From NCBI GenBank assembly GCA_002390025.1, contig DGRU01000228.1, positions 1-23,424 of the forward strand: DNA of 23,424 nt, given 5' to 3'. A model generated the notes under the pieces. That model ran no database searches, was not told the origin of the DNA, and saw only the letters and a program-made list of their open reading frames with translations. The position numbers and the translations under genes are program-made. Shown in pieces: positions 1,699 through 23,190 of the stretch. Position 1 is the first letter of the stretch. Every line of letters starts with the position of its first letter. The stretch is from Lachnospiraceae bacterium UBA4380. GTDB taxonomy: Bacteria > Bacillota > Clostridia > Lachnospirales > Lachnospiraceae.

Positions 1699-4002
1699 TC
1701 AGCAGCGCGAACTGCTGCAGGTAAAATAGAGGATCTGATACCTTCTGCCCGTTTCGCGCAGAAACCGCATTGCGCCCTCCATCTTTTCGTCGTCAAGATT
1801 GGTAAAGGGATCGTCCAGGATCAGCGGCGGCCTCTCTCTTGTGTCTGTCGGATACATGGCATCCGCCAGGGCCGTGCGGAGACAGATTCCGGCCAGATCC
1901 TGCCAGCCTGTACTGAGCCTGGCGGCCTCTCTCTGTTTTCCTCTCTCTTCAACCGTCACCCTGGCATCTGCGTCCACGTGGACGACGGCAGCCGAATATC
2001 CGGTGATCATCTCCCAGTAAGTGCTGAAGCTTCTCCGGATCGGATCCGCGTAGCGCGCGATCAGCGATTCTCTCGCCTTCTGCAGGAAAACAGAAGCGGT
2101 CGTTATATGACGGTAGTCGTCCTCATCTCTCCGCCGCTGCTCACACAGTTCTCTGACTTCCTCCGCCATTGCCTCTCTTTCCTCCTGTTCGGAAAGGAGG
2201 TCTTCCATCCTGTTCTGCAGATCTGCAAGCTGTGTCCGGCAGGCAGCAAGTTCTTCCCGGATCTGCTCTCTGCGGTCCCGGAGTTCTCTTGTCCCCGGCT
2301 GTCTGGTCTGCTTGGGCAGGGGCTGTATTTTTTCAGGAGGTATTTCCGGCCGGGCTGATTCTTTTTTGAAGAGACGCAGTTCTTCTTCCGCCTCCCTGAG
2401 CAGGGCCGCTGCATCTTCACAGTCATCAGCCGCATCCCGGATGGCGGCGATCTGTGCAGAGAGGTCCTCTGCGGGGGCAAATCCAAGTTCTCTCAGAAAA
2501 TGCAGGACGGGCCTTCTGGCTTCCGCCCAGGCCGCATGCATCTCTTCAAGCTTCTGTTCCTTCTCTTGCAGCTCCAGATATTCCGCATAGGCGCGGGAAA
2601 GACCCTCATCGGCAGCAGCACCCTCTGCCCCCTCTGACCGGACGGGCTCAGCTTCTCCCCCGGCCGCGCTCCTCTTCCATAAGCCGGCAGCGATCATTCC
2701 GGCCCCCGCCGCAGCCGGCAGGATGGCTGCAGCCACGGCCAGAGCCGCGATCCCTTTTTCAGAAGCTGAAGGGACAAGAGCCAGGGCCATCACCGCGCCT
2801 GCCAGGGCCAGGAGTGCTCCCATCAAAATAAAAACATTGCTTCCGGAAGCTGTCCGGGCTCCCTTTTCCTGAGAGGACCCGGTCACTCGCGGATTTCCGT
2901 CCCTATCTTCCGGATTTCCGCCCCTGTCTCCCGGTTTTCGTCCCGCCTGTGCCGGGTCGGAAAAATACTCCTCCAGAAAGGTCAGTCTTTCCTGCTCTTC
3001 TTCCGTGAGCATCCGGGCCTGCATCCGCTCCTCCAGCCGCTCTATTTTACGGCAGTTCCGCACATGTTCATCCGCCTCGCCGCGCGACGGTATGCGCTGA
3101 GGAAAGCAGGCCGCCTTCTCTTCAAAGTCAGCGCGCCGCCGTTCTTTTGCGGCAGTCAGACGGGCAAGAATCTGCTGCTCTGCCAGAAGATCCCGGTTTG
3201 CCCGCTCCATTCGGAAATACTCCTCCTCTTCCTGCTCCGCGGCGGCAATGGCCTCCGTGAGCTGCTTTTTTTCTGCTTCCAGGGCCTTCTCTTTTTCCTG
3301 CAGCACCTTCTGTTCACGGCTGCACAGGGCTATGCGCTCTCCAAGATCGTCTGACGACCTGAGTTTCTGCTGCAGCTGTCCGATCTGCGCCGACAGGCGG
3401 CAGAGCCTTCCGGTCGCTCGCTTTGGTGTCAGGCGGTTGGCGGCTTCCCTCAGCCTCTTCTGAGCATTCTCATAGTTCTCCATGTCGCCGGCATATTCCG
3501 CCAGGTCCGTGACCAGTGAGTTGATGTCGTCCGTCACATGTGTTACGCAGTCCTGCTGCGCCGTAAAAACGGTCCGCAGAAAGGAATCCCTGTCAAGAGC
3601 AAACATCTCCCTTCCGATATTTGCTGTGTAATCAAAACTGGGAAGGTTTGTGTCAAAATCCCGCAGTTCAAATTCGTCCTGCGCCTCACGCTCTCCGAAG
3701 ATTCGGGACATCTCATAGGTTCTGCCGCCCGCTTCAAAGACGATCTGCCCTCCGAAAATACCGCCCTGCCAGGGTCGGTAGAAGGTGCGGGCATTCTTCT
3801 CAGGCAGCCTGTCCCCCCGGGAAACAGCCTGCCTTTTTCTGCCCTTTGCAGGCAGTCCGTAAAACATGGCAAGAAGAAAGGCTGCGAAAGTGCTCTTTCC
3901 CCAGCCATTCTCCCTGCAGATCACATTGATCCCGTTCGAAAATACATAGTCAAAGTCATGCAGACGCCCGAAGTTTTCCACATGACAGGAAATCAGTTTC
4001 AT
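1699..4002 (-). CDS. YhaN-like SMC/Rad50-type ATPase with transmembrane hairpin
   Basis: This 767-residue protein has split ABC-type ATPase halves joined by coiled coil, as in the YhaN/SbcC-like family. The N terminus (MKLISCHVENFGRLHDF) leads to a P-loop ENGWGKST (31-38, Lys36). It lacks the canonical first Gly of Walker A. Coiled coil spans about 180-350 and 470-640. Two hydrophobic segments (about 390-410 and 417-442) form the membrane hairpin common in YhaN proteins. A signature LSTGWQDLAGICLRTALAD (695-713) and Walker B LILDDPF (727-733) close the ATPase. ATG at 4002 was chosen to match family N termini; a TTG at 4044 overlaps the upstream stop but has no properly spaced ribosome site. 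It is the last gene of the operon, 34 bp after the RyR/Sel1 gene. Its usual partner YhaO is encoded 8.9 kb away (12860-14065), which is unusual. It could act with YhaO in DNA processing or within the TIR operon. Confidence 0.85.
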   Translation of the reverse strand: MKLISCHVENFGRLHDFDYVFSNGINVICRENGWGKSTFAAFLLAMFYGLPAKGRKRQAVSRGDRLPEKNARTFYRPWQGGIFGGQIVFEAGGRTYEMSRIFGEREAQDEFELRDFDTNLPSFDYTANIGREMFALDRDSFLRTVFTAQQDCVTHVTDDINSLVTDLAEYAGDMENYENAQKRLREAANRLTPKRATGRLCRLSAQIGQLQQKLRSSDDLGERIALCSREQKVLQEKEKALEAEKKQLTEAIAAAEQEEEEYFRMERANRDLLAEQQILARLTAAKERRRADFEEKAACFPQRIPSRGEADEHVRNCRKIERLEERMQARMLTEEEQERLTFLEEYFSDPAQAGRKPGDRGGNPEDRDGNPRVTGSSQEKGARTASGSNVFILMGALLALAGAVMALALVPSASEKGIAALAVAAAILPAAAGAGMIAAGLWKRSAAGGEAEPVRSEGAEGAAADEGLSRAYAEYLELQEKEQKLEEMHAAWAEARRPVLHFLRELGFAPAEDLSAQIAAIRDAADDCEDAAALLREAEEELRLFKKESARPEIPPEKIQPLPKQTRQPGTRELRDRREQIREELAACRTQLADLQNRMEDLLSEQEEREAMAEEVRELCEQRRRDEDDYRHITTASVFLQKARESLIARYADPIRRSFSTYWEMITGYSAAVVHVDADARVTVEERGKQREAARLSTGWQDLAGICLRTALADAMYPTDTRERPPLILDDPFTNLDDEKMEGAMRFLRETGRRYQILYFTCSSSRC

Positions 4003-4036
4003 GATCAGTTCCCATACTGTATTAACTGAATTTATT

Positions 4037-7000
4037 TTACTCAATCCCCACCAGGTATTCTGTCATCCTGATATTATCGCGGTCGATCCCGCGGATATCT
4101 GAAGGTTCCTTTCCCGGACTGATCTGCTGCAGCAGGTATCCGTAGATTCGCTGCATGCCTGTCGGGACGGGTTTTAATTCTCCCAGCTGGTCCCATGCAC
4201 AGAGGAAGGGATGGAGTTTGGCCAGATACAGCTGATGCCGTGTACAGCCGCGCTGTATATAGGCCTGCATCTGGGCAGTGCTCGCCGGCATCCAGCCCCG
4301 GGAGAGCATAGACCGGCACCATCTGTCATGCTCCTGCATGGACAGGATCTCAAGACGCCTGTCTGCAGTCTGCTCCCTGAGGCGTTCCCGATCCGCTCCT
4401 TTGCCGCGGTCCGCCCCCTCTTTTCCGGGATTCCCTTCGTCCTCCGCCCGCAGCCATTTTCCGAACTGGTCTGCAAGCTTTTTCTGAGAGACCCCGGCCA
4501 GATAGCTGTGCCAGTCCGGGAAAGTGATTCCCGCAGAAAACAGACGGTAATTTAATGCCAGCGCATTGATTCCGGAACTGTCTCTGTTATACTGGCGCGA
4601 AAAGTAGTCATGCAGTGCAAGGCGGAGATTGTCTCCGCTTTCAGGCCCTTCTGCGCCGCGGATTCCGTAATAAGTCAGATGTGCCGCTCTTGTCCGCTGC
4701 TCAAGACGGCCGTGGATCAGTTCCCGGTAGGAAAACAGCTGTTTATTGGTTCCGAAGCAGTGAATGTCGTAATTGTTGAACCAGTCAAACCCCGCTTCCT
4801 CCGCCCCGACGGACAGGGTGCGGAACTGTTCCGCCCGGTCCTCTCTGCCGCAATAGGCAGCGATGAAGGGAAGTCTGTAAAATGAGGGGTCAGTCTTGAG
4901 GTACCACTCACGCAGGAACATGGACAGGGTCAGGTTTCTGTCTTCATCCGCCGTGTAGACGACGATATAATCTGCCGCCTGCAGGGTCATGGACAGGTCT
5001 TTCTCCTCCGGAGTCCAGTCCTGCCCGGGACGGACGGAAAGCAGTTCCTGCAGACGCCTGGACTCCGGCCGCATTTTGATAAAGACGGGCTTTGCCGCCT
5101 CAACTCCCGCCACAGGATTGTCAAGTCCGGGACAATCTGTCAGGAGCATCTCCTGCAGTTCATCCGCATTCTCGCCGATCACGGTAAGAGAAAAGGGAAT
5201 CTCACTGATCTGGGCAGCCGCAATCGCGTCCTTGCACAGACGGACGATCCCGGGATGATCACCGAAAATGATCGTGTCCATACGGGAGGATGCCCCTTTG
5301 AGGCAGGGGATGAAGAGAGGCAGGCGGTCGAGCAGCCAGGCAGAAGCCATCTGATCCGGGTCGCACAGATACAGAGGAATATAAAAATCTCCCATCTGCG
5401 TGCAGGCGCTGTCCAGGACGGGCCCGCACGATTCCCCGCGTCCGCACACATAGAGACGAAGGCGGTCGGAAAGCAGGTAAAACAGGCCGTCAGCGCGGTC
5501 CTCCCCGCTGCCCGCGGTATCTTTCCCGGATCCGGACCCGTCCGCCGCCAGAGCCCCTGTCCACGCGTGCAGTTTTGCCGCCATCCGAAGGACTTCCAGC
5601 GCATCCCTCATGTTTTTCTGTTCATCGTCCCCCATAGCCATGAGCAGGATCTGAGGGAGTTCCTGCAGTTTTCCGGATGCCGCATACTGCGCCACGGTTT
5701 CCCGCAGCATCTGGGCCATGCTCTTGTCCGAACAGACCTGTACGGTATAGTTCCCCGATGGAAGTGTTTTTGCAAAATAGAGGTTCCGCTCATCGTCGGA
5801 ATTGAGGAGACAGAGTTTCCCTGTCTTTTCAATATCCGCTCCTGCCGGACCTTCCGAAGAGGAAAGCGGTAGATCCCTTTCCTCTTCCGCAAAGAGGCCG
5901 GCCGCGGCGCCGGAGAGGCCGCCGCCGGACTGAATTGTATCTGCCCGATCGGGACGGGAGGATTTTCCCCCGGTCCCGGAGATCCCCCAACGCAGCCTGT
6001 TCAGAAGTGCCGCGGCTTCCCTGTGCCCCCTGCGGGCGGCTGTTTCCAGCCAGAATGCAGGATCCGCCATGGGACCGGTGAACAGATCGCTCTCCGCCAG
6101 GACTGCCGGGACAGGTCCTCCCTGTCCGTTTCCGCTTTCCTCCAGAATCCTTCCCAGCATGTACTGACACTGTGCATCTCCTTCAGACAGGTTTTCGGCA
6201 CAGGCCCCTTCAAGATAGCAGCGGGCGGCTTCATTGAGGTCCTTTTCAACACCGGGCAGAGAGTCCCCCGTGTAACAGGCATTTCCCAGCATGCGCAGGC
6301 AGGCGTGGTCTTTTTCCTCTGCGCCTTTTCGGAGGATTTCCACCGCCTTTTCTCCCTTTCCGGACTGGACAAGGAGCATTGCCAGCGGATGATAGGCGGG
6401 AACATACCCGTACCCGGCACTTTCCTCCATACAGACAGCCGCACTCTCCTCATCCGCGGTGCAGCCATCCCCGTGAAGGACCATTGCGCCGATGTAATAC
6501 TGCAGGCGGGCGTACAGTTCTCTGTCTTCAGGGTCAGCGTCGGCTGCGTCTATACTGCCTTCCAGCATCCGGACTGCTTTGCGGTAGCTCTCAAGGGCCT
6601 CCTTGCGAAGGCCGTCTGTGTACAGGATCTTCCCGGTCCTGGCCAGCTCGTGCGGCTGTGTATAATCTTTTGCCGCGAGGTCCCTGTCCATCAGATGCCA
6701 GCAGGCAAGAATAGATTCATATTTTTCTTCCGAAAAATCATTCATGGATGCCGCGAGCAGCAGGAGGGTCAGAACACGCTGCGGTGCCGCCAGACTCATC
6801 GACTGGAGCTGGAGGGCCCTGTCTCCGTCCCGTACAAACAGGGGATTGTTCTTGCCGAGTTCATCCAGCAGTTCTTTCCATACATCCGGGCTCAGAGCGG
6901 GTTCCCCGCCGGGGCACAGGAATACTCTGCATTTTTCAGCCATTTCCTGAACGAACTGAACGGGATTCTCCTCAAAGAGTTTTTCGACCTGGAGGCGGAT

Positions 7001-7234
7001 CCTGCCGCCGTTTTCCTGCCCGTGCAAAAACCAGGAATAATAGGAGGCGGAGGAGAGTCCGCGCAGATATTCTCCGATCTGGGCGGGAAAAACTTTTTCC
7101 ACCTTCTCTTCGCGGGCAAATGTAAACCGCCCCTCCGAGGACCGCAGTATTTTCTGATCTTCGATCTTCTCAAAGATCATATTGACGGTGAAAGGAGATA
7201 TTCTGCTTCTTGTTGTTTTTTTCATTGCTGCCAT
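4037..7234 (-). CDS. Sel1-repeat, Rossmann-like and RyR-domain multidomain protein
   Basis: This is a large cytoplasmic protein of 1065 residues with no signal or membrane segment. Residues about 1-170 are unrecognised. Residues about 190-415 are helical Sel1/TPR-like repeats (LARTGKILYTDGLRKEALESY, LAMLLVQSGKGEKAVEIL, MLGNACYTGDSL). Residues 415-475 are a Gly/Ser-rich linker. Residues about 480-860 contain Rossmann-like strands, notably MDTIIFGDHPG (652-661) followed by FSLTVIGEN, and ADYIVVYTADED (754-765), as in TrkA-N-type nucleotide-binding folds. Residues 962-1062 are a divergent RyR domain: EHDRWCRSMLSRGW, then AKLHPFLCAWDQL and DRDNIRMTEYL. The start at 7234 has GAGG about 10 bp upstream. 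It lies 21 bp after the TIR gene and is surely co-transcribed. Likely role (inference): a sensor or scaffold that binds a nucleotide-type ligand and talks to the TIR protein. Confidence 0.75.
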   Translation of the reverse strand: MAAMKKTTRSRISPFTVNMIFEKIEDQKILRSSEGRFTFAREEKVEKVFPAQIGEYLRGLSSASYYSWFLHGQENGGRIRLQVEKLFEENPVQFVQEMAEKCRVFLCPGGEPALSPDVWKELLDELGKNNPLFVRDGDRALQLQSMSLAAPQRVLTLLLLAASMNDFSEEKYESILACWHLMDRDLAAKDYTQPHELARTGKILYTDGLRKEALESYRKAVRMLEGSIDAADADPEDRELYARLQYYIGAMVLHGDGCTADEESAAVCMEESAGYGYVPAYHPLAMLLVQSGKGEKAVEILRKGAEEKDHACLRMLGNACYTGDSLPGVEKDLNEAARCYLEGACAENLSEGDAQCQYMLGRILEESGNGQGGPVPAVLAESDLFTGPMADPAFWLETAARRGHREAAALLNRLRWGISGTGGKSSRPDRADTIQSGGGLSGAAAGLFAEEERDLPLSSSEGPAGADIEKTGKLCLLNSDDERNLYFAKTLPSGNYTVQVCSDKSMAQMLRETVAQYAASGKLQELPQILLMAMGDDEQKNMRDALEVLRMAAKLHAWTGALAADGSGSGKDTAGSGEDRADGLFYLLSDRLRLYVCGRGESCGPVLDSACTQMGDFYIPLYLCDPDQMASAWLLDRLPLFIPCLKGASSRMDTIIFGDHPGIVRLCKDAIAAAQISEIPFSLTVIGENADELQEMLLTDCPGLDNPVAGVEAAKPVFIKMRPESRRLQELLSVRPGQDWTPEEKDLSMTLQAADYIVVYTADEDRNLTLSMFLREWYLKTDPSFYRLPFIAAYCGREDRAEQFRTLSVGAEEAGFDWFNNYDIHCFGTNKQLFSYRELIHGRLEQRTRAAHLTYYGIRGAEGPESGDNLRLALHDYFSRQYNRDSSGINALALNYRLFSAGITFPDWHSYLAGVSQKKLADQFGKWLRAEDEGNPGKEGADRGKGADRERLREQTADRRLEILSMQEHDRWCRSMLSRGWMPASTAQMQAYIQRGCTRHQLYLAKLHPFLCAWDQLGELKPVPTGMQRIYGYLLQQISPGKEPSDIRGIDRDNIRMTEYLVGIE

Positions 7235-7255
7235 CTTCGTATCCTCACATTCGGA

Positions 7256-10102
7256 TCACTCAGTGCCGTTTAAGATCCGGTCTCCCTTTTCCCGCAGGTC
7301 CCCGGGTGTGTAAAGGTCACTGATATACACATGCGCGCCATCCCAGTCCTTCTCTTCAAGCATGAGCGTATCCGTCATCGGGTTATATCCCAGGACCTTA
7401 TGAATCCTGCATGACAAAGTGCGGGTATCCGGGTCAATCCTGAAAAGAGTATCATGGAACTGTACGATCATCTCGCCGTCCTTCTCTGTCAGGGAAAGCC
7501 GTCCGGTCTCTTCCCCGGTGTCAGAGATTGTCTCCCCGGCGTCGACCAGGATCCTGCCGTCCTCATCGCACAGCCACAGCCCGTCCTGCGCAGTCTCCAT
7601 CCAGAAAAGTTTGCTGCCCAGCCAGTTGATCCCCCTGACCGCATCGCCCGTGCCCTCTATGCTCTTTGTCTGATTTCCTTCTTTATCCGTGATCGAGATC
7701 GAGTTTTCCCCGCTGATCACTGCCAGGTACTTTCCGTCATCGCTCCGGACACCCTCTTCACTGTCAAAAAAGAGCCCGTCCGGAACTTCCCCGTTCACAA
7801 GTTCTCCGGCATTTTCATGCCCGCTCAGATCCTCTCCGGTCACCGCATCAAATACAGCCGATCTCCCGTTTTCACCCCAAACAACAAACCGGGATTCCTC
7901 CGCCTGGCAGATTTTCTCTCCCTTAAAGATATCGGCCGCTTCGCCGTCGATCCCGATCTCCCTCAATCCGTCGTCAGTGACGCCGCTGCGGAAAGCAAGG
8001 ATACGGTTCCGGATATGATTTTTTTCGTCACTCCGGTATTGGGCAAAGAAAAGTTCCCCGTACTTTTCCAAGCTCACCGGATCGCGCGGTATTTCACCGA
8101 TCCCCCGGCTGATCGGCCCTCCGGGATAGTGAAAGGCCGCGATCGAACCATCCTGAAGTACCGCCATCATGACATCTTCCCCGTCGGGTGTGGTTTCTCC
8201 GTATACACTTCTGATATAGCCGGGAAACTCCGCCGTACATAGTTTTTCTCCGCTGTCCATGTCAAAAATTTCCGCCATAGTACCCGCGGCGAGAACTACA
8301 TACTGCCGGTCCTCACCGGAAAACCACACTCTATGAGTCATCAAGGGTTCAATGTTGCGGGCACAATCAGATTCCTGCGCCCAATCAGGCTTTCCGCCCC
8401 AGCAGTCCGCTTCCACCAGCGTGAGCTTTCCCTCTTTCGAAGATGCGCCGTCCCAGCTCTTCTCATCACCATGGAATCTCTGCTGGTCCGGTCCCTCATA
8501 GACCGCCGCCAGCACCGACCTGTCCCCCATCTTGTAGATTTCCGGGATCTCCTGTCCCCGCACCGGCACTGTCGTCTGTCCGGTCTCCAGATCCAGGATA
8601 CAGATCACTTCCTCTTCTCCGCTTTTCTCACTGCGTACAGTTCCGTGCAGGAAGAGATGTCTCCCGTCATAGGAAAGTCTGGTATCTTTCTGAAAGTCGA
8701 GGATGTTGAAGGACAGGGTCTCCTCCACTGCCTCCTTTTCTTCTTCCGGCTTACTGCGGTCAGATTTTTCGTCATGGGCGTCATCCTGATCAACGGGCAG
8801 TACAACATCTTTGTCCGGTGAAAGTAATTCTTCGAATGTGCCGTCCTGTCTCAGAATAAGCAGATCCGCGCTTGTTTTTCCATAGGCCCAGAAAAGGGCC
8901 CCGTCCGCAGTCCAGTCAACGGGCATAAGTGAAATATAGTCTGTTTCCAGGGTGGTTTTTCCGCCGTTTTTCAGATCGATGCTGACCACCTCATTATCGC
9001 TTGCCCACAGCAGGGTCTGATCTGTAAACAGGATGCTGTCAGGAACAGCGCTTTTTTTCTCCGCCGGCAGTGACTCTGCAGATGCGGTATCGTCCGGGTG
9101 CAGCACCTCTTCCTCTGTCTCCGCGGAATCATAAAACAGGGCCCCGGTGTCCGTGTTCCATATTTTCAGTTCCGTTTTTCCCCTGTTCACCGCCAGGACT
9201 GCCAGGAAGGATCCCGCGTCTGTTTCCTTAAACTTCCATGTGCTGATCTCTCCGTCAACCGGAAACTCGCCTGTCTGCGTCATGGCATTGTCTCCTGCCA
9301 TCCGGTAGGCGCCTGTTGCTTCCTGCAGAGCCAGAATCGCTTCGGGGGCCGAAGGCTGCTTCTCTTCCTCCGCCACTCCCTCCATGGCATAGCGGATGGC
9401 GTCAAACCTATCTCCGCGGGCCAGCGCCTGGGAAGAGAGTTCCGCCAGAAGTCTTGATCCCTCCTCCTGTTCCGCGCGGAGCATTTTCCTGGTCCTGTAT
9501 CCGGCGACACCGTTGACAACCGTAACGCTGGAGAGCAGGAGAACAGCTGCCGCCGAGATCGATGCGATCACAGCAGTATGCTTTTTCTCCCTGCGTCTTG
9601 TGCGGTTTACCAGCTCGTCATAAGTACAGCCGATCAGCGTCGAGATCAGCCTGGGGAGTTCCTCCCGGACAGCCTGACGGGTATCTCCCCTGAAATCACA
9701 GGCGACCGGCTCGCGGGGAGCTCCCGACGATTGTCTGAAGAGTTCCTCGTACACTGTCTCGGGGTCTCCGTCGGACAAAACAGGCAGAATTTTGTCTGAC
9801 TTGTGGTGGAGCAGGAAATAATTGATCTCCTCCGGCACCCAGCGGGACCGGGCCGCGTCCGGTGAGCAGATTACGATCAGATACTCGCTGTCATCGAGTT
9901 CCCTCTGCAGCTCCTCCGTCAGATCCGTGTTCGTACCCAGATCCGTCTTGTCGCGGAAGATCCTGCCCAGATGCCTCTTTCTGCCCGCGGCGCGTATCCC
10001 CCGCGGGATCCGGAACTGTTCCAGATTTTTCTGCACCATTCTCGCCACTTCCGAGTCATGCGGCACATGCCTGTAAGAAATAAAAGCCTTGTTTTTGTAC
10101 AT
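7256..10102 (-). CDS. TIR-domain membrane protein with beta-propeller-like ectodomain
   Basis: This protein has 948 residues. An N-terminal TIR domain (1-~125) shows KAFISYRH (5-12), IFRDKTDLG (48-56), YLIVICSPDAARSRW (74-88) and a helix with Trp88 and Glu91/Glu92, the position of the catalytic Glu of NAD-cleaving TIR domains. A linker with CTYDELVNRTRRREKKH precedes one transmembrane helix (about 177-200). The remaining ~745 residues are beta-rich repeats with D-x-x-TG turns (IWNTDTGALFYDS, ILDLETGQTTV, IFDMDSGEKL, VFDAVTGEDL), resembling WD40/PQQ-type propellers, probably outside the membrane. ATG at 10102 is chosen because AGAGGTGA (10104-10111) lies just upstream; an in-frame GTG at 10177 has no ribosome site. 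It is the first gene of the three-gene operon. NAD hydrolysis is inferred from family knowledge and is not shown by sequence alone. Confidence 0.85.
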   Translation of the reverse strand: MYKNKAFISYRHVPHDSEVARMVQKNLEQFRIPRGIRAAGRKRHLGRIFRDKTDLGTNTDLTEELQRELDDSEYLIVICSPDAARSRWVPEEINYFLLHHKSDKILPVLSDGDPETVYEELFRQSSGAPREPVACDFRGDTRQAVREELPRLISTLIGCTYDELVNRTRRREKKHTAVIASISAAAVLLLSSVTVVNGVAGYRTRKMLRAEQEEGSRLLAELSSQALARGDRFDAIRYAMEGVAEEEKQPSAPEAILALQEATGAYRMAGDNAMTQTGEFPVDGEISTWKFKETDAGSFLAVLAVNRGKTELKIWNTDTGALFYDSAETEEEVLHPDDTASAESLPAEKKSAVPDSILFTDQTLLWASDNEVVSIDLKNGGKTTLETDYISLMPVDWTADGALFWAYGKTSADLLILRQDGTFEELLSPDKDVVLPVDQDDAHDEKSDRSKPEEEKEAVEETLSFNILDFQKDTRLSYDGRHLFLHGTVRSEKSGEEEVICILDLETGQTTVPVRGQEIPEIYKMGDRSVLAAVYEGPDQQRFHGDEKSWDGASSKEGKLTLVEADCWGGKPDWAQESDCARNIEPLMTHRVWFSGEDRQYVVLAAGTMAEIFDMDSGEKLCTAEFPGYIRSVYGETTPDGEDVMMAVLQDGSIAAFHYPGGPISRGIGEIPRDPVSLEKYGELFFAQYRSDEKNHIRNRILAFRSGVTDDGLREIGIDGEAADIFKGEKICQAEESRFVVWGENGRSAVFDAVTGEDLSGHENAGELVNGEVPDGLFFDSEEGVRSDDGKYLAVISGENSISITDKEGNQTKSIEGTGDAVRGINWLGSKLFWMETAQDGLWLCDEDGRILVDAGETISDTGEETGRLSLTEKDGEMIVQFHDTLFRIDPDTRTLSCRIHKVLGYNPMTDTLMLEEKDWDGAHVYISDLYTPGDLREKGDRILNGTE

Positions 10103-10129
10103 ACTCACCTCTAAATGCCGCAGCACCCC

Positions 10130-10161
10130 TGCGCCTTTGCGCCTTTGCGCCCTTGCGCCCT
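10130..10161. repeat. Octamer tandem repeat in TIR operon leader
   Basis: Four adjacent 8-bp units, TGCGCCTT, TGCGCCTT, TGCGCCCT and TGCGCCCT, lie 28-59 bp before the TIR start codon and would be transcribed in its leader. Slippage could alter the leader length. Confidence 0.8.
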
Positions 10162-10384
10162 CGTGCGGCGCAAACACCTGCTGCGTAAGTGTATATAGCG
10201 ATTCCCCTCAAATTAAAAACGGCATTTTTATTATTAAGCATTTCAAACTTAAGATTAACATATTTTTAACCATTCCACCATATGAAAAAGGAATAAACAG
10301 ACTCTTTTCCACAGCCCGATCCGCACCGGGCCCTATTGCTGCATGACTTGTTAATTGGCCGCTCTTTTTGTTAAGGAAAATCAC

Positions 10385-10413
10385 TTTTGTGTTAACAACA
10401 GGACAGTTATACT
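10385..10413 (+). promoter_or_regulatory. Putative promoter of the RyR gene pair
   Basis: TATACT at 10408-10413 is a good -10. The sequence 17 bp upstream (TTTTGT, 10385-10390) is a poor -35. An inverted TTAACAA site (10392-10398) sits in the spacer, suggesting repression or activation through the TTGTTAA sites. This is a prediction by eye only. Confidence 0.35.
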
Positions 10414-10533
10414 TTCATCAGAATAAAACAGCGGGACTGCCCCGCACCCGGCGGATCATTTCCTGCCGCCCCTGTCCCCAGTCCGGCACAGGCCGTTCTG
10501 TAATCCTCATCCAGTAACAGAAGGAGGTTCATT

Positions 10534-10821
10534 ATGTACGATCCTCATCCCTACGAAAGCGACACCATTTATCTCTCCTCCGAACTGACTGTTCTCACAG
10601 AAGACATCTCCGAGAGCATCCACGATCTCTGGGGACGGAAACGTCTGGATGAAGGATGGGTATGGGGCTCGGAGCGCAGTGATCTGCACCGCACAAATCC
10701 CAGACTGGTTCCCTACAGTCAACTGTCCGAAATGGAAAAGGACGACGACAGGAGCCTGGTCCTCCAGACCATCCGCCTGATCCTGAGCAAAGGCTATAAA
10801 ATCGAAAAAAATGCCGTGTAG
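10534..10821 (+). CDS. Stand-alone RyR-domain protein, copy 1
   Basis: This 95-residue protein consists almost wholly of one RyR domain (the repeat of animal ryanodine receptors, Pfam RyR). Diagnostic segments are ISESIHDLWGRKRLDEGW (26-43), followed by WGSERSD, then NPRLVPYSQLSEMEKDDDRS and a final helix to GYKIEK. The order H-x-x-W..GW..NPxLVPYxxL is that of the family. A strong GAAGGAGG (10520-10527) precedes ATG by 6 bp. No signal peptide or membrane segment is present, so it is cytosolic. It is a tandem paralogue of the next gene (about 53 of 95 positions identical, no gaps). Prokaryotic RyR domains have been suggested to sense small ligands in conflict systems; the function here is unproven. 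The neighbouring minus-strand operon also encodes a RyR domain. Confidence 0.88.
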   Translation: MYDPHPYESDTIYLSSELTVLTEDISESIHDLWGRKRLDEGWVWGSERSDLHRTNPRLVPYSQLSEMEKDDDRSLVLQTIRLILSKGYKIEKNAV

Positions 10822-10850
10822 CAGCTGCGGCTCTCTTATGAACCCGACAC

Positions 10851-11004
10851 TGTACCGAAGAGGGATATCAATGTCTGACGCGTGTAACCTTACCCGCCTG
10901 TTCCGGCAGGCAGACGCAGACGGACTTACACTACCTGTGACGGAAAGACTATATCTGACGGTTCTGCATACTGTGCGATGACATTGATATCCCTCTTTGG
11001 TACA
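10851..11004. repeat. 25-bp inverted repeat enclosing 104 bp between RyR genes
   Basis: The left arm 10851-10875 (TGTACCGAAGAGGGATATCA then ATGTC) is repeated in inverted orientation at 10980-11004 with a single mismatch. The 104-bp interior has a GCCTG/CAGGC hairpin and no gene. The layout resembles a small miniature inverted-repeat element or a long-range RNA stem between the two paralogous genes. Confidence 0.85.
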
Positions 11005-11055
11005 AGATCCGAACCCGCCTGTATCTGCAGGTGCGTAAAGATAAAGGAGATTTAC

Positions 11056-11343
11056 ATGTACGATCCTCGTCCCGTAGATACCGGAACGATTTTTCTCACC
11101 CCGGAACTGACAGTCCTGACCGAAACGATCTCTGAAAACATACACGATGTATGGGGACGCCGGCGTATAGACCAAGGCTGGAAATGGGGTCCTGCCCGCG
11201 ATGACAAAAAAAAGACTTCCCCCTGCCTGATTGCCTACCAGGACCTGCCGGAAATCGAAAAAGAATATGACCGCTCCATGGTTCTGGAAACCATCAAGAT
11301 GATCATTGCCCTCGGCTATCGTATCGAAAAAGATTCCGCCTGA
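11056..11343 (+). CDS. Stand-alone RyR-domain protein, copy 2
   Basis: This 95-residue paralogue of the preceding RyR protein opens with the same MYDP and has the same spacing throughout. The core is ISENIHDVWGRRRIDQGW, then KWGPARDD, then SPCLIAYQDLPEIEKEYDRS, and a final helix MVLETIKMIIALGYRIE. By memory of family sequences this copy is even closer to animal ryanodine-receptor repeats, which share the IxQGWxxGPxRDD, PCL and LPExExxY features. ATG at 11056 follows AAAGGAGA (11043-11050); an upstream ATG at 10978 lies in the inverted repeat and lacks a ribosome site. The gene is probably co-transcribed with copy 1, although 234 bp with an inverted repeat separate them. A terminator follows at 11459. 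Confidence 0.88.
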   Translation: MYDPRPVDTGTIFLTPELTVLTETISENIHDVWGRRRIDQGWKWGPARDDKKKTSPCLIAYQDLPEIEKEYDRSMVLETIKMIIALGYRIEKDSA

Positions 11344-11710: not shown

Positions 11711-12841
11711 GTGAAAACCATTCTCCTGTACATCTGTCTGATCGTGATCTCTGTCGCCGGATGCGGCAGAGCACCGGCACAAAATGATGCGGAAATATCC
11801 GGACACATCTCCGCCGGCAAAGACGCGGCGGCTGATTCTGCAGCCGCCTCTTCAACCGGGCCCGCCGGGCCGGCCGTCGATAAAGCTCCTGCTGCCGAAG
11901 CCGCTGCCGCCGAGGCAGCTTCCGATGCAGCCTCTTCTGTTCAAGCCTCTTCCGCTCAAGCTTCTTCCGTTGAATCCTCCGCAACAGCAAAGCAGGCTGA
12001 GGAGACAGAAACTGCCGCGGAGAAAGCTTCCGCAGAAAGCACGAAAACTGTGTCCCATGATAAAGCCCAGGCTCCCGCTCCCCGGAAGCTCAAATATATC
12101 GACGCCTGGGAGGAGTGGCACACCATGGATGTCGATCCTGCAGTGAGAGAAACCGCCTATGACGCAGACCTCTTCACTTATGACGACGACAATCCTCAGC
12201 AGATCACCTACCTGGGAGATCTGGAATATCTGCAGGGAATAGATGTCTCCGAACACCAGGGAACTATCGACTGGCAGGCAGTAGCTGATGCGGGCTATCG
12301 CTTCGCCTTCATCCGGGTGGGTTACCGGGGCTATGGAGAAGCAGGCACTCTTGTCCGGGACTCCATGGCCGTACAGAACCTGCAGGCAGCCAAAGCTGCG
12401 GGGCTGTACGTGGGCACCTACTTCTTCTCCCAGGCCCTGAACGAGAAAGAAGCCGCCGAGGAAGCCGAACTCGCTCTCAGCGTCATCCGGGAATCCGGCA
12501 TAGAACCGGACCTTCCCCTCATGTATGACCCGGAAACCATCAGGGACGATTGGGGCCGCGCCAACGAGATCAGCCGGGACCAGATCGCACTCAACACAGC
12601 CGCCTTTTGCGGGACGGTCGAGTCTTCCTCCTCCTGCAAAGCGGATATTTATTCAAATCTTCCCTGGGAACACAAGTATTTTGACGCAGACACCATGAAT
12701 GCTCACGACATCTGGTATGCGGATTACGAGCCCCTTCCCCAGACGCCCTATCACTTCACCTGGTGGCAGTACACCAATGAAGGGACCGTCCCGGGAATAG
12801 AGGGTTTTGTAGATCTCAACCTGTGGCTGCGGGAAAAATGA
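11711..12841 (+). CDS. GH25 muramidase lipoprotein
   Basis: This 376-residue surface lipoprotein is a predicted lysozyme cleaving the glycan strands of peptidoglycan. The signal peptide ends in the lipobox VAGC (Cys18). Residues about 25-125 are an Ala/Ser/Glu-rich linker. The GH25 domain runs from about 172 to the end: LQGIDVSEHQGTIDW (174-188, Asp178), FAFIRVGYRGYG, GLYVGTYFFSQ, the catalytic-site LMYDPET (Asp273, Glu275 as the D-x-E pair), DIWYADYE and FTWWQYTNEGTVPGIEGFVDLN. The start is GTG at 11711, preceded by AAAGGAGG (11697-11704). The gene is monocistronic and converges on the YhaO-like gene with an 18-bp gap and no clear terminator. It probably serves cell-wall remodelling. Confidence 0.9.
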   Translation: MKTILLYICLIVISVAGCGRAPAQNDAEISGHISAGKDAAADSAAASSTGPAGPAVDKAPAAEAAAAEAASDAASSVQASSAQASSVESSATAKQAEETETAAEKASAESTKTVSHDKAQAPAPRKLKYIDAWEEWHTMDVDPAVRETAYDADLFTYDDDNPQQITYLGDLEYLQGIDVSEHQGTIDWQAVADAGYRFAFIRVGYRGYGEAGTLVRDSMAVQNLQAAKAAGLYVGTYFFSQALNEKEAAEEAELALSVIRESGIEPDLPLMYDPETIRDDWGRANEISRDQIALNTAAFCGTVESSSSCKADIYSNLPWEHKYFDADTMNAHDIWYADYEPLPQTPYHFTWWQYTNEGTVPGIEGFVDLNLWLREK

Positions 12842-12859: not shown

Positions 12860-14065
12860 TCACACAAGTTCCTCTCCGTCCATGGCCCTGAAGCCGCAGC
12901 GGATCACCTCCGTTCTGTCCTGAGAACGGATCGAGGGATCCGCCATGACCAGACGGACGAACTCCCCGCGCAGGGATTCGTCATACAGGTAATCCTCAAC
13001 ATTGAGACAGAGCCTGGTTGCGTCGCGAAGGCGGGCAAAGAAAAATTCCGATTCGAGGACCGTGCGGAGATAGCCCAGGTCCTTCTCGCAGTCCACCTCC
13101 AGCTCTCCGCACAGGGTCACGTCCGCCATATCTCTTGAAGTGCATCCCGCTGCCCGCAGGGCATTCTCAGCCATGTCCTTCATCTGCGCCGTCGACATGC
13201 ATCCCGTCACATCCGCCCGCACAGCGTACAGAGTGCGCTGTGCAAAAGGGACAAAACGATGTGTCATCGTCCTCCTGTCTTCATCGATCTCCAGCATGGC
13301 AAATCCGCGGGGACCGCTCTCGTCGAACCCCCGTCCCTCCAGACATCCCGGATAACAGTAGATTCCCCGGCTGTCCAGCGGCGCCTTTTTGCAGGCGTGG
13401 ATATGCCCGAGGGCAAGATAATCGATGTTTCTGCCCCGCAGCGCGGGAATGCTGATGACACCCGCATAACCGCCGCCCTTCTCCTCTTTTTCGCCTTTTG
13501 CGGAAAAGGTCTGCTCGAAATGCCGCCCGTAAGCGGTTCCGGGCGGCAGTCCCTCCGCAGAGGCCGGACGTCCTCCTGTCTCCTGCCCGTGAAGCATGAC
13601 GATATTAAAGCAGGCGGGATCGGTCCGCAGTGAGGCCGGAGCCCCGGCGCTGTTTTCCCGGGTCAGTTCCATGCCTGTGATGGCGATTCTCCCCTTCTCC
13701 CCCTCGCGATAAGTCTTCCAGCGGTTTCCGAACAGGAAGAGATTGGCCGGCGCTGCGCCGCTGCCGGACTCCTTCGTTCCCAGACAGTCTCCGGTATCAT
13801 GATTTCCCCGCAGATAATAAAAGCGGATATCCGGATGGGCCTTGATCACGGACAGCACCGTGTTTTTTGCCAGTGCGGAGACCGTGTCCCGGTCAAAGAG
13901 ATCGCCCGCGATCAGGACTGCCTCCACCCCCTTCCGGGAAGCATATTCTGCAAGGCGCTCGAAGTTATTCAGGAGTTCATCCCGCCGGCGTTTTGCGCGG
14001 TCCCTGTCCAGATGCGTATGCAGTTTTGAATCCAGATGCAGGTCTGCACAGTGAATCAGCTTCAT
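12860..14065 (-). CDS. YhaO/SbcD-like metallophosphoesterase (DNA nuclease)
   Basis: This 401-residue calcineurin-like phosphoesterase belongs to the Mre11/SbcD/YhaO type. Metal-ligand motifs are in order: CADLHLD (Asp8, His10), IAGDLFDRD (Asp55), LRGNHD (Asn88, His89), MLHGQE and LGHIHACK. The C-terminal ~120 residues match the capping region of YhaO-type proteins. Such enzymes normally pair with a YhaN or SbcC ATPase in DNA end processing. The only such ATPase here is encoded at 1699-4002, in a separate operon. The start ATG follows GGGAAGAG. The gene begins 27 bp after the MATE stop and is probably co-transcribed with it. Confidence 0.88.
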   Translation of the reverse strand: MKLIHCADLHLDSKLHTHLDRDRAKRRRDELLNNFERLAEYASRKGVEAVLIAGDLFDRDTVSALAKNTVLSVIKAHPDIRFYYLRGNHDTGDCLGTKESGSGAAPANLFLFGNRWKTYREGEKGRIAITGMELTRENSAGAPASLRTDPACFNIVMLHGQETGGRPASAEGLPPGTAYGRHFEQTFSAKGEKEEKGGGYAGVISIPALRGRNIDYLALGHIHACKKAPLDSRGIYCYPGCLEGRGFDESGPRGFAMLEIDEDRRTMTHRFVPFAQRTLYAVRADVTGCMSTAQMKDMAENALRAAGCTSRDMADVTLCGELEVDCEKDLGYLRTVLESEFFFARLRDATRLCLNVEDYLYDESLRGEFVRLVMADPSIRSQDRTEVIRCGFRAMDGEELV

Positions 14066-22449: not shown

Positions 22450-23190
22450 TCACGCTTTCTGAATCACACCTCGATTAATCCCTGTCAACCGCTCCAACTG
22501 GCGGATGCTCAAACCTGCTTTTTTCAGCGCTCTGAGCGTTCTATCCCGTTCCTCCCTGTCCATTCTCTGAAGATTTGTTCCGCTCTGCCCCTTTAATTGG
22601 CAGTGAATCACCCGGAGCGCCCACTTGTCATCATACCTCACTCCTGTATCGAACTCCATGCACTCATCATCATTCTCTTCCTCTAAATACGCGTCAAAAG
22701 CTTTTTTATCCCCCAACAGAGACTTTATGACACTCATGTCTACAAATGAAGAACTGTCACCAAAACAGCAATAGCTGCTCCATTGATAATCCTTTGCCGG
22801 ACAGACTCCTGCCTTTTGCGGATTATTCAGGATATATCTTGTTACGGTAATCAGGTATGCTTCATCCTCCACCGGTTCACTGCGATAACGATCCTGAAAC
22901 AAATGCCCTACCCTTTCATATTTCTGATTAAAATAATGAGAGTAGCGTATCCCTATTTTTTTCATGAATTCCGAGATTTTCTTTTCTTTGTCATGAAGAA
23001 GTAAATGAGTGTGGTTTTCCATAAGACAGTAAGCACACACAGCCACTCCCGTCTCTCTGCTATACTTCTCAAGCATCCTCAGATAAAACCGATAATCATC
23101 GGGCGTCTCAAACAGTAATTGCTTTCCAATCCCTCTCTGCATCGCATGAAAATAACCGCTTTCAGAAAACTTTCTGGCCTGGCGTGGCAT
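22450..23190 (-). CDS. REP-associated tyrosine transposase (RAYT, Y1/HUH)
   Basis: This 246-residue single-domain transposase is related to IS200/IS605 TnpA. The HUH metal site is MENHTHLLL (His60, His62), and the nucleophile is a Tyr in IRYSHYFNQKY (Tyr83 or Tyr86). GHLFQDRYRSEPVEDEAYLITVTRYILNNPQKAGV is the standard RAYT core. The C terminus (RTLRALKKAGLSIRQLERLTGINRGVIQKA) is a helix-turn-helix typical of Firmicutes RAYTs. RAYTs cut and join REP hairpins in single-stranded DNA. ATG at 23190 follows AGAGGAGA. The gene is complete and flanked on both sides by REP-like palindromes, as is usual for this domesticated, non-IS arrangement. Confidence 0.93.
   Translation of the reverse strand: MPRQARKFSESGYFHAMQRGIGKQLLFETPDDYRFYLRMLEKYSRETGVAVCAYCLMENHTHLLLHDKEKKISEFMKKIGIRYSHYFNQKYERVGHLFQDRYRSEPVEDEAYLITVTRYILNNPQKAGVCPAKDYQWSSYCCFGDSSSFVDMSVIKSLLGDKKAFDAYLEEENDDECMEFDTGVRYDDKWALRVIHCQLKGQSGTNLQRMDREERDRTLRALKKAGLSIRQLERLTGINRGVIQKA

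What the first reader, a model, noticed from the sequence alone, without database searches (positions are those of the whole stretch)
1699..11343. Candidate TIR-RyR-ATPase sensing or conflict system with divergent RyR genes
Seen: a three-gene operon (TIR membrane protein; Sel1/Rossmann/RyR protein; YhaN-like ATPase; gaps 21 and 34 bp) faces two small RyR-only genes across a 431-bp divergent promoter region. Known: TIR domains cleave NAD in several prokaryotic immune systems; SMC-like ATPases occur in others; RyR domains in bacteria often accompany Rossmann or ligand-sensing folds. Inference: the locus is one unit in which RyR/Rossmann proteins sense a small ligand or modified protein and the TIR protein is effector or signal transducer. 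I know of no described system with this set.
Basis: partly seen in the sequence, partly recalled or inferred. Interest (0 to 1): 0.75.

Follow-up and report, generated by a model that had tools for sequence, protein, structure and literature searches.

The report
TIR enzyme paired with ryanodine-type receptors
A rumen bacterium carries an immune-type TIR enzyme next to proteins that share a ligand-binding domain with animal ryanodine receptors, and such pairs recur in other bacteria, which suggests that the TIR makes a small signal that the ryanodine-type domains read or erase.

Summary
YhaN pairs with a nuclease-type gene (12860-14065): the two are adjacent in 27 of 34 YhaN-positive genus genomes; here an insert splits them. 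The insert holds TIR, Sel1-RyR and two RyR-only genes, shared by 3 genus genomes. A fourth has Sel1-RyR alone; in a fifth, TIR and Sel1-RyR sit together elsewhere, away from YhaN.

A 2026 preprint shows that phage RyR proteins bind or cleave TIR-made cADPR. The window's RyR-only proteins keep the catalytic H and D, not the phosphate-binding H. Best reading: the TIR makes an ADP-ribose signal, the RCK-RyR protein reads it, RyR-only proteins erase or buffer it. No activity was shown. A key 2025 preprint could not be read.

The parts
7256..10102 (-). TIR gene, 948 aa: TIR domain (residues 1-160), hydrophobic helix (about 172-196, by eye), tandem beta-propellers (270-930)
4037..7234 (-). Sel1-RCK-RCK-RyR gene, 1065 aa
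   Evidence: Sel1 repeats about 185-420, RCK/TrkA-like fold 472-865, RyR-like about 945-1020
4640..5821 (-). tandem RCK/TrkA-type fold of the Sel1-RCK-RyR protein (residues 472-865)
4175..4402 (-). divergent RyR domain of the Sel1-RCK-RyR protein (residues 945-1020): keeps H, W and HP positions, lacks the aspartate
   Evidence: hhalign with the channel-RyR family; residue table; not detected by Pfam
10534..10821 (+). RyR1, RyR-only gene, 95 aa (H30 W33 N55 D72)
   Evidence: PF02026 89.4 bits; residues
11056..11343 (+). RyR2, RyR-only gene, 95 aa (H30 W33 S55 D72); start moved from 10978
   Evidence: PF02026 111.4 bits; AGGAG before ATG 11056
10103..10533 (.). divergent promoter region between TIR and RyR1
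   Evidence: sequence
10851..11004 (+). inverted repeat, 25-nt arms (10851-10875, 10980-11004), 104-nt loop, between RyR1 and RyR2
   Evidence: 96% complementary; RNA fold -67 kcal/mol, z -6.9; also in G083, G026, G008 with paired changes, by eye
11711..12841 (+). GH25 lysozyme-like gene inside the insert; not part of the TIR-RyR module
   Evidence: PF01183 96.1 bits; also between the pair in G008 and G013, and outside it in G010 and G076
12860..14065 (-). SbcD/YhaO-like metallophosphoesterase gene, usual neighbour of YhaN; not part of the module
   Evidence: PF00149 50.1 bits; next to YhaN in 27 of 34
1699..4002 (-). YhaN/SbcC-like ATPase gene; not part of the module
   Evidence: AAA_23 above its cut-off, SbcC_Walker_B below it

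Best explanation
A TIR-based small-molecule signalling module with ryanodine-type (RyR) readers, inserted between two housekeeping genes. The membrane TIR protein senses something through its C-terminal propellers, and its TIR domain turns NAD+ into an ADP-ribose signal (cADPR-type). The signal binds the RyR domain at the end of the Sel1-RCK-RyR protein and changes its RCK ring. In related loci that ring sits under a K+ pore; here Sel1 repeats stand in the pore's place and pass the change to an unidentified partner. The two RyR-only proteins, which keep the catalytic His and Asp of the phage enzyme RyDEP, hydrolyse or soak up the signal and so limit the response. Most likely use: defence against phage. 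Shown here: gene content, domain make-up, fold homology, linkage. Inferred: the signal, direction of signalling, role of each RyR class, defence.
For: TIR-RyR linkage: 15 of 37 order loci within 5 kb versus 0.27 expected; 9 of 10 rows (6 of 7 genomes) outside the order (counted by hand). Mostly same strand, from overlapping ORFs to gaps of about 160 bp. The linked TIRs carry different second domains (propeller, LRR, beta-helix, NACHT-type, NB-ARC), so RyR goes with the TIR domain, not with one sensor. TVGYG K+ channel-RyR genes in four TIR-linked loci (L167, L193, L238, L245); in L238 channel-RyR, TIR-propeller and TM-RCK-RyR lie in a row. Window protein homologous to both types and RCK-like by fold. 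RyDEP residues H75/W78/H100/D117 (PMC13232231) fall, at a constant offset of 45, on H30/W33/N or S55/D72. RyR-only proteins keep H and D in 20 of 21. TIR Glu92 invariant in 27 of 27.
Against: No activity was measured. In the preprint RyDEP cleaves cADPR but none of the eight tested homologues does (six of eight bind it); both window RyR-only proteins lack the phosphate-binding His100. 22 of 37 order RyR loci have no TIR within 5 kb. Of ten TVGYG-RyR proteins only four have a TIR in the stretch read. The Sel1-RCK-RyR gene occurs without a TIR match in G008 and in 9 of 9 distant loci read, three of them on contigs of 3.4-5.1 kb. No output partner was found in the window, whose surroundings are housekeeping, not a defence island. 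RyR-only genes also sit beside other large proteins. The linkage null ignores defence-island clustering.
Confidence: 0.5

Rival explanations
1. Reverse order: RyR/RCK proteins are sensors of a nucleotide or ADP-ribose derivative made elsewhere, and the TIR protein is the NAD+-destroying effector that they switch on.
For: Same linkage data; some TIRs act by depleting NAD+ (TIR-STING, as stated in PMC13142454, passages).
Against: RyR is the shared part while the TIRs' second domains vary as sensors do; K+ channel-RyR genes look like effectors; a TIR product is a known RyR ligand (PMC13232231).
Confidence: 0.22
2. A housekeeping envelope or K+ homeostasis circuit, not immunity: the propeller senses envelope state and the RCK-RyR proteins adjust K+ flux through ADP-ribose ligands.
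For: RCK/TrkA folds regulate K+ transport (established knowledge; fold match); window neighbours are housekeeping genes; propeller on a probable membrane protein.
Against: Patchy distribution: RyR in 35 of 392 order genomes and 10 of 398 phylum genomes, own included; TIR partners with NACHT-type, NB-ARC and LRR parts; RyR genes in phages with anti-defence activity (PMC13232231).
Confidence: 0.15
3. One reading: the YhaN ATPase (with the phosphoesterase) is part of the system, for instance a DNA-damage sensor or nuclease effector.
For: YhaN is co-directional behind Sel1-RyR in the window clade.
Against: YhaN and the phosphoesterase within 500 bp of each other in 27 genus genomes; TIR-Sel1RyR away from YhaN in G071; in ten TIR-RyR loci compared with the window proteins (L197, L213, L216, L217, L220, L221, L224, L236, L238, L243) no YhaN or phosphoesterase match appears. 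Loci L255-L261 were not compared this way.
Confidence: 0.05

Closest known systems
RyDEP, phage RyR-domain glycosidase/sponge (PF02026; preprint PMC13232231, parts 1, 2 and 5 of 6 read, passages elsewhere)
   Same: RyR domain with the same H-x-x-W motif and the His/Asp dyad at the same spacing
   Different: Host chromosome, next to a TIR gene; His100 replaced by Asn or Ser; two tandem paralogues; the parts and passages I saw describe no bacterial TIR-linked RyR genes
Thoeris (ThsB TIR + ThsA effector)
   Same: TIR that matches ThsB_TIR, expected to make an ADP-ribose signal read by a partner gene
   Different: No SIR2, SLOG or Macro hit among the window genes; partner is RCK-RyR; PADLOC gives only weak ThsB hits
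RCK-gated K+ channels and TrkA gating rings (GsuK, TrkH-TrkA)
   Different: Carry a C-terminal RyR domain; the window's version has Sel1 repeats and no pore
Animal ryanodine receptor R12 domain
   Same: RyR2 gene's best stretch is repeat 1 and RyR1 gene's is repeat 2 of R12 in full-length receptors; adenine-stacking Trp kept (PMC12627627, passages)
   Different: Separate genes; a tree of bacterial RyR-only proteins (no animal rows) groups RyR1 with RyR2, so the repeat-wise likeness is probably convergent
YhaO/YhaN (SbcCD-like)
   Same: Phosphoesterase and YhaN genes flank the insert
   Different: Not part of the module

Membership tests
RyR domain family PF02026 | Pfam gathering score | tested here: met
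   RyR1 89.4, RyR2 111.4 bits against 27.4
RyR domain family PF02026 | same, for the C-terminus of the Sel1-RCK-RyR protein | tested here: inconclusive
   no Pfam hit; hhalign alignment to channel-RyR proteins, of which L238's scores 28.0 bits for PF02026
RyDEP-type cADPR glycosidase | catalytic His75 and Asp117 plus Trp78 | tested here: met
   H30, D72, W33 in both RyR-only proteins at constant offset 45; RyDEP's own sequence was not at hand
RyDEP-type cADPR glycosidase | His100 that contacts the phosphates | tested here: not met
   Asn55 in RyR1, Ser55 in RyR2
RyDEP-type cADPR glycosidase | hydrolysis of 2'/3'cADPR | not testable with these tools
   needs enzyme assay
Thoeris | ThsB-type TIR | tested here: met
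   ThsB_TIR 34.6 bits against 21.2; Glu at the catalytic position (recalled motif) invariant in 27 of 27
Thoeris | ThsA effector (SIR2-SLOG or Macro-TM; recalled, partly in PMC11204291's title and abstract as listed) | tested here: not met
   no SIR2, SLOG or Macro hit in the 15 window genes scanned; no PADLOC ThsA hit on the six window proteins given
Thoeris | TIR-made signal activates the partner and stops phage | not testable with these tools
   bench only
RCK/TrkA gating ring | tandem RCK fold | tested here: met
RCK-gated K+ channel | pore helix and selectivity filter in the same protein | tested here: not met
   no Ion_trans_2 hit in the window protein; its N-terminal part is helical Sel1/TPR repeats in the model
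YhaO/YhaN pair | phosphoesterase and AAA/SbcC-like genes adjacent in relatives | tested here: met
   27 of 34 YhaN-positive genus genomes

The most novel reading that the evidence does not exclude
Bacterial RyR domains are general receptors for TIR-made ADP-ribose signals. In some TIR loci they gate K+ channels (TVGYG pore, RCK ring, RyR domain), a bacterial counterpart of the cADPR-ryanodine receptor idea in animals; the window holds a pore-less Sel1-RCK-RyR version plus two host signal erasers of the kind from which phages took RyDEP.
Probability: 0.42. Interest if true: 0.88.

Novelty: new variant of a known kind. Interest (0 to 1): 0.72.

Why it matters
It would give RyR domains a native bacterial job: partner of TIR enzymes. 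It would explain where phage RyR anti-defence proteins come from, add an RCK-RyR reader (and K+ channel effectors) to TIR signalling, and make the old, disputed cADPR-ryanodine receptor link testable in a small bacterial system.

Tried and rejected
Rejected: the five-gene unit (synteny). Rejected: Sel1-RyR always with TIR; the 9 distant loci (21-36% identity by piece) show no TIR in the stretches read, three of them on contigs of 3.4-5.1 kb; two further G009 matches (C491, C521) cover the Sel1 part only and were not counted. Rejected: RyR1/RyR2 as ancient counterparts of animal R12 repeats 1 and 2; in a tree without animal rows RyR1 and RyR2 form one clade (99/99), the exact nesting being weak (82/71). 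Rejected: the inverted repeat as a dispersed element; an exact 14-base arm search in 62 genus genomes finds it at this locus in G000, G083, G026, G008 and a single arm in G034. Rfam gave only a tRNA. Led nowhere: literature searches gave mostly unrelated papers; RyDEP's own sequence was not found (PDB; the 60 of 126 phage records listed). Fold searches: a family absent from the lists is not excluded.

Weak points of my counts. My RyR profile (ryr.hmm) was built partly from the sequences it then found, so its E-values for the Sel1-RyR family are circular; searches are the independent support. My TIR profile came from this TIR-propeller family and missed other TIRs; the counts use Pfam TIR_2 instead. 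The aspartate column in fused RyR proteins lies in a gappy stretch and is less sure than in RyR-only ones. The genus TIR search used the window's protein. The Poisson null ignores defence-island clustering; distances are start to start. Dropped before that count: own genome (2 RyR rows), G083, G026, and one TIR row below the cut-off (G150:C38:317). Five of the 37 RyR rows are below Pfam's cut-off (G155, G387:C1, G403, G317, G368) and all five are TIR-linked; without them it is 10 of 32. Outside the order one of the ten rows (G856:C7:123599) is below the cut-off; without it 8 of 9; G1028 and G1104 are one genus, G856 and G957 one family. In one search I left out loci L160, L083, L249 and L222 as duplicates or near-duplicates, and rows above E 1e-5. 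One order sample and one phylum sample were drawn (392 and 398 genomes, sharing G000, G086, G102 among the RyR-positive ones).
Full report
What is there. The window is from an unnamed, 75%-complete genome (G000:C40); named relatives found with the Sel1-RyR protein are three uncultured Lachnospiraceae MAG contigs. From 1699 to 11343 lie, on the minus strand, the TIR gene (7256-10102), a Sel1-RyR gene (4037-7234) and a YhaN-like ATPase gene (1699-4002), and on the plus strand two RyR-only genes (10534-10821 and 11056-11343). Pfam confirms TIR, RyR and AAA_23. The second RyR gene most likely starts at 11056, behind an AGGAG, not at 10978.

The ATPase does not belong. Upstream on the same strand, at 12860-14065, is a calcineurin-like phosphoesterase of the SbcD/YhaO kind. 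In the genus, 34 of 62 genomes have a YhaN match; in 27 of the 34 its matched stretch is within 500 bp of the phosphoesterase's, in 5 they share a contig but are apart, in 1 they are on different contigs and in 1 no phosphoesterase was found. The five are G000, G083 and G026 (whole block between them), G008 (GH25 and Sel1-RyR between them) and G013 (GH25, contig edge). So a housekeeping pair was split by an insert.

What is in the insert. G000, G083 and G026 share GH25, both RyR-only genes, TIR and Sel1-RyR; G026 has one more TIR gene (527 aa) between Sel1-RyR and YhaN. G008 has Sel1-RyR but no match to the window's TIR or RyR-only genes, yet has the inverted repeat that lies between the two RyR genes in the others; this fits loss of those genes, though the repeat could also be older than them. 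In G071 a full-length Sel1-RyR homologue (40% identity) overlaps a TIR-propeller gene on contig C124, with no PF02026 match in that genome; YhaN and the phosphoesterase are on C159. The TIR there runs to the contig end, so its far side is unseen. Thus TIR plus Sel1-RyR occurs as a pair of its own. Nine more distant Sel1-RyR relatives (G009 twice, G035, G021, G024, G007, G761, G364, G334) had no TIR in the stretches read, three of them on short contigs.

RyR goes with TIR in general. In 392 genomes of the order, own included, PF02026 is found in 35. Without the own genome there are 37 RyR loci in 34 genomes; 11 have a TIR_2 match within 2 kb and 15 within 5 kb, against 0.11 and 0.27 expected from the number of TIR genes in those genomes (data). 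Leaving out five rows below Pfam's cut-off, all linked, gives 10 of 32 within 5 kb. In 398 genomes of the phylum, own included, RyR is found in 10; 7 of these are outside the order and give 10 RyR rows, of which 9, in 6 genomes, have TIR_2 within 5 kb. The pairs are usually on one strand, from overlapping ORFs to gaps of about 160 bp, with two divergent cases (L167, L244). The linked TIRs carry different second domains: propellers (window, L246), LRR (L217, L221, L260), beta-helix (L256), NACHT-type (L259), NB-ARC-TPR (L216, 2.4 kb from its RyR gene). The constant parts are TIR and RyR. The null takes no account of defence-island clustering.

K+ channels. In L193 the RyR protein directly before the TIR has an Ion_trans_2 domain, and so have one of the two RyR proteins in L167 and the one before the TIR in L238; the L238 pore matches solved K+ channels at E down to 4e-15. 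Ten RyR proteins carry TVGYG near the N-terminus; four of them (L167, L193, L238, L245) have a TIR in the stretch read, six do not. L238 has channel-RyR, TIR-propeller and a second TM-RCK-RyR gene in a row. In L259 the RyR protein has a Pfam TrkA_N domain and its neighbours are a DUF4231 protein and a TIR-NACHT-type protein. That the TVGYG proteins carry RCK domains is inferred from homology; Pfam shows none in the three scanned.

The RyR-only proteins. Preprint PMC13232231 (parts 1, 2 and 5 of 6 read; [quoted passage not shown] Taking 45 from each number gives H30, W33, residue 55 and D72 in both window proteins; residue 55 is Asn (RyR1) or Ser (RyR2), not His. Among 21 RyR-only proteins 20 keep both H and D (the other is a truncated frame) and 6 have His at 55. 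The ten TVGYG proteins have H, W, H and D; the five Sel1-RyR proteins of the window clade and G071 have H, W, H but no D. This splits RyR proteins into likely readers and likely erasers or sponges. The adenine-stacking Trp is also the one seen in human RyR R12 (PMC12627627, passages).

Mechanism. Shown: genes, domains, folds, linkage. Inferred: the TIR makes an ADP-ribose signal on sensing through its propellers; the Sel1-RCK-RyR protein reads it with RyR on a gating ring; pore-bearing relatives answer by K+ flux; in the window the output partner is unknown; RyR1 and RyR2 limit the signal. Probability of this outline about 0.5. The reverse order (RyR senses, TIR kills) about 0.22. A non-immune envelope or K+ circuit about 0.15.

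What is known. No PADLOC model hits the Sel1-RyR or RyR proteins, and the TIR only weakly as ThsB and SAVED-TIR. Searches for print; only PMC13232231 held 'RyR domain', 'TIR domain' and 'bacteria' together, no paper held both 'TIR domain' and 'RCK domain'. Two papers that bear on novelty could not be read: Yirmiya et al. 2025 (seen only in reference lists; not held) and Burroughs et al. 2015 (recalled; not held). A 2022 survey of NAD+-ADPr systems in viruses has no occurrence of RyR or ryanodine in its main text. I therefore file it as a new variant of TIR-based signalling, not as Thoeris.

Noticed in passing
window 10851-11004: Inverted repeat with 25-nt arms and a 104-nt loop between RyR1 and RyR2; arms change together in G083, G026 and G008 while the loop diverges; one copy per genome by exact arm search; in G008 it stays although RyR and TIR matches are absent. 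Function unknown.
   Followed up: partly
L016:13276-14859 (G026): A second TIR protein of 527 aa, TIR at its C-terminus, sits between Sel1-RyR and YhaN in one relative.
   Followed up: no
L256:6362-9821 and L257:6227-9878: Possible three-gene operon outside the order: in L256 guanylate cyclase-TPR-S, RyR-only, TIR-beta-helix (Pfam); L257 has similar sizes in the same order.
   Followed up: no
L213:3454-8312, L215:1-4482, L216:8062-12577, L158:2-3080: RyR-only genes directly beside very large related proteins; Pfam shows a kinase-like part in L216's and Card1/NERD nuclease-like parts in L213's and L216's. A second recurrent partner of RyR.
   Followed up: partly
L217:6315-8269, L218:6191-8261, L219:6210-8242: RyR-only genes overlapping or touching a related 554-603 aa protein; the L217 copy has no Pfam hit.
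   Followed up: no
L079:9910-14145 and L080:1380-6331: Distant RCK-RyR relatives between an ABC_trans_CmpB gene and a LigB-AMMECR1 gene in two genus genomes, no TIR seen nearby.
   Followed up: no
L156:5755-13201 and L157:1777-9207: RyR-only gene facing a 628-642 aa TM-RCK-RyR-type gene, beside a large protein with a kinase-like domain and an SseB-Sel1 gene (both by Pfam in L156); conserved in two genomes at 79-98% identity.
   Followed up: no
window 22450-23190: Y1/IS200-like transposase gene with a weak HTH-like stretch at the C-terminus.
   Followed up: no
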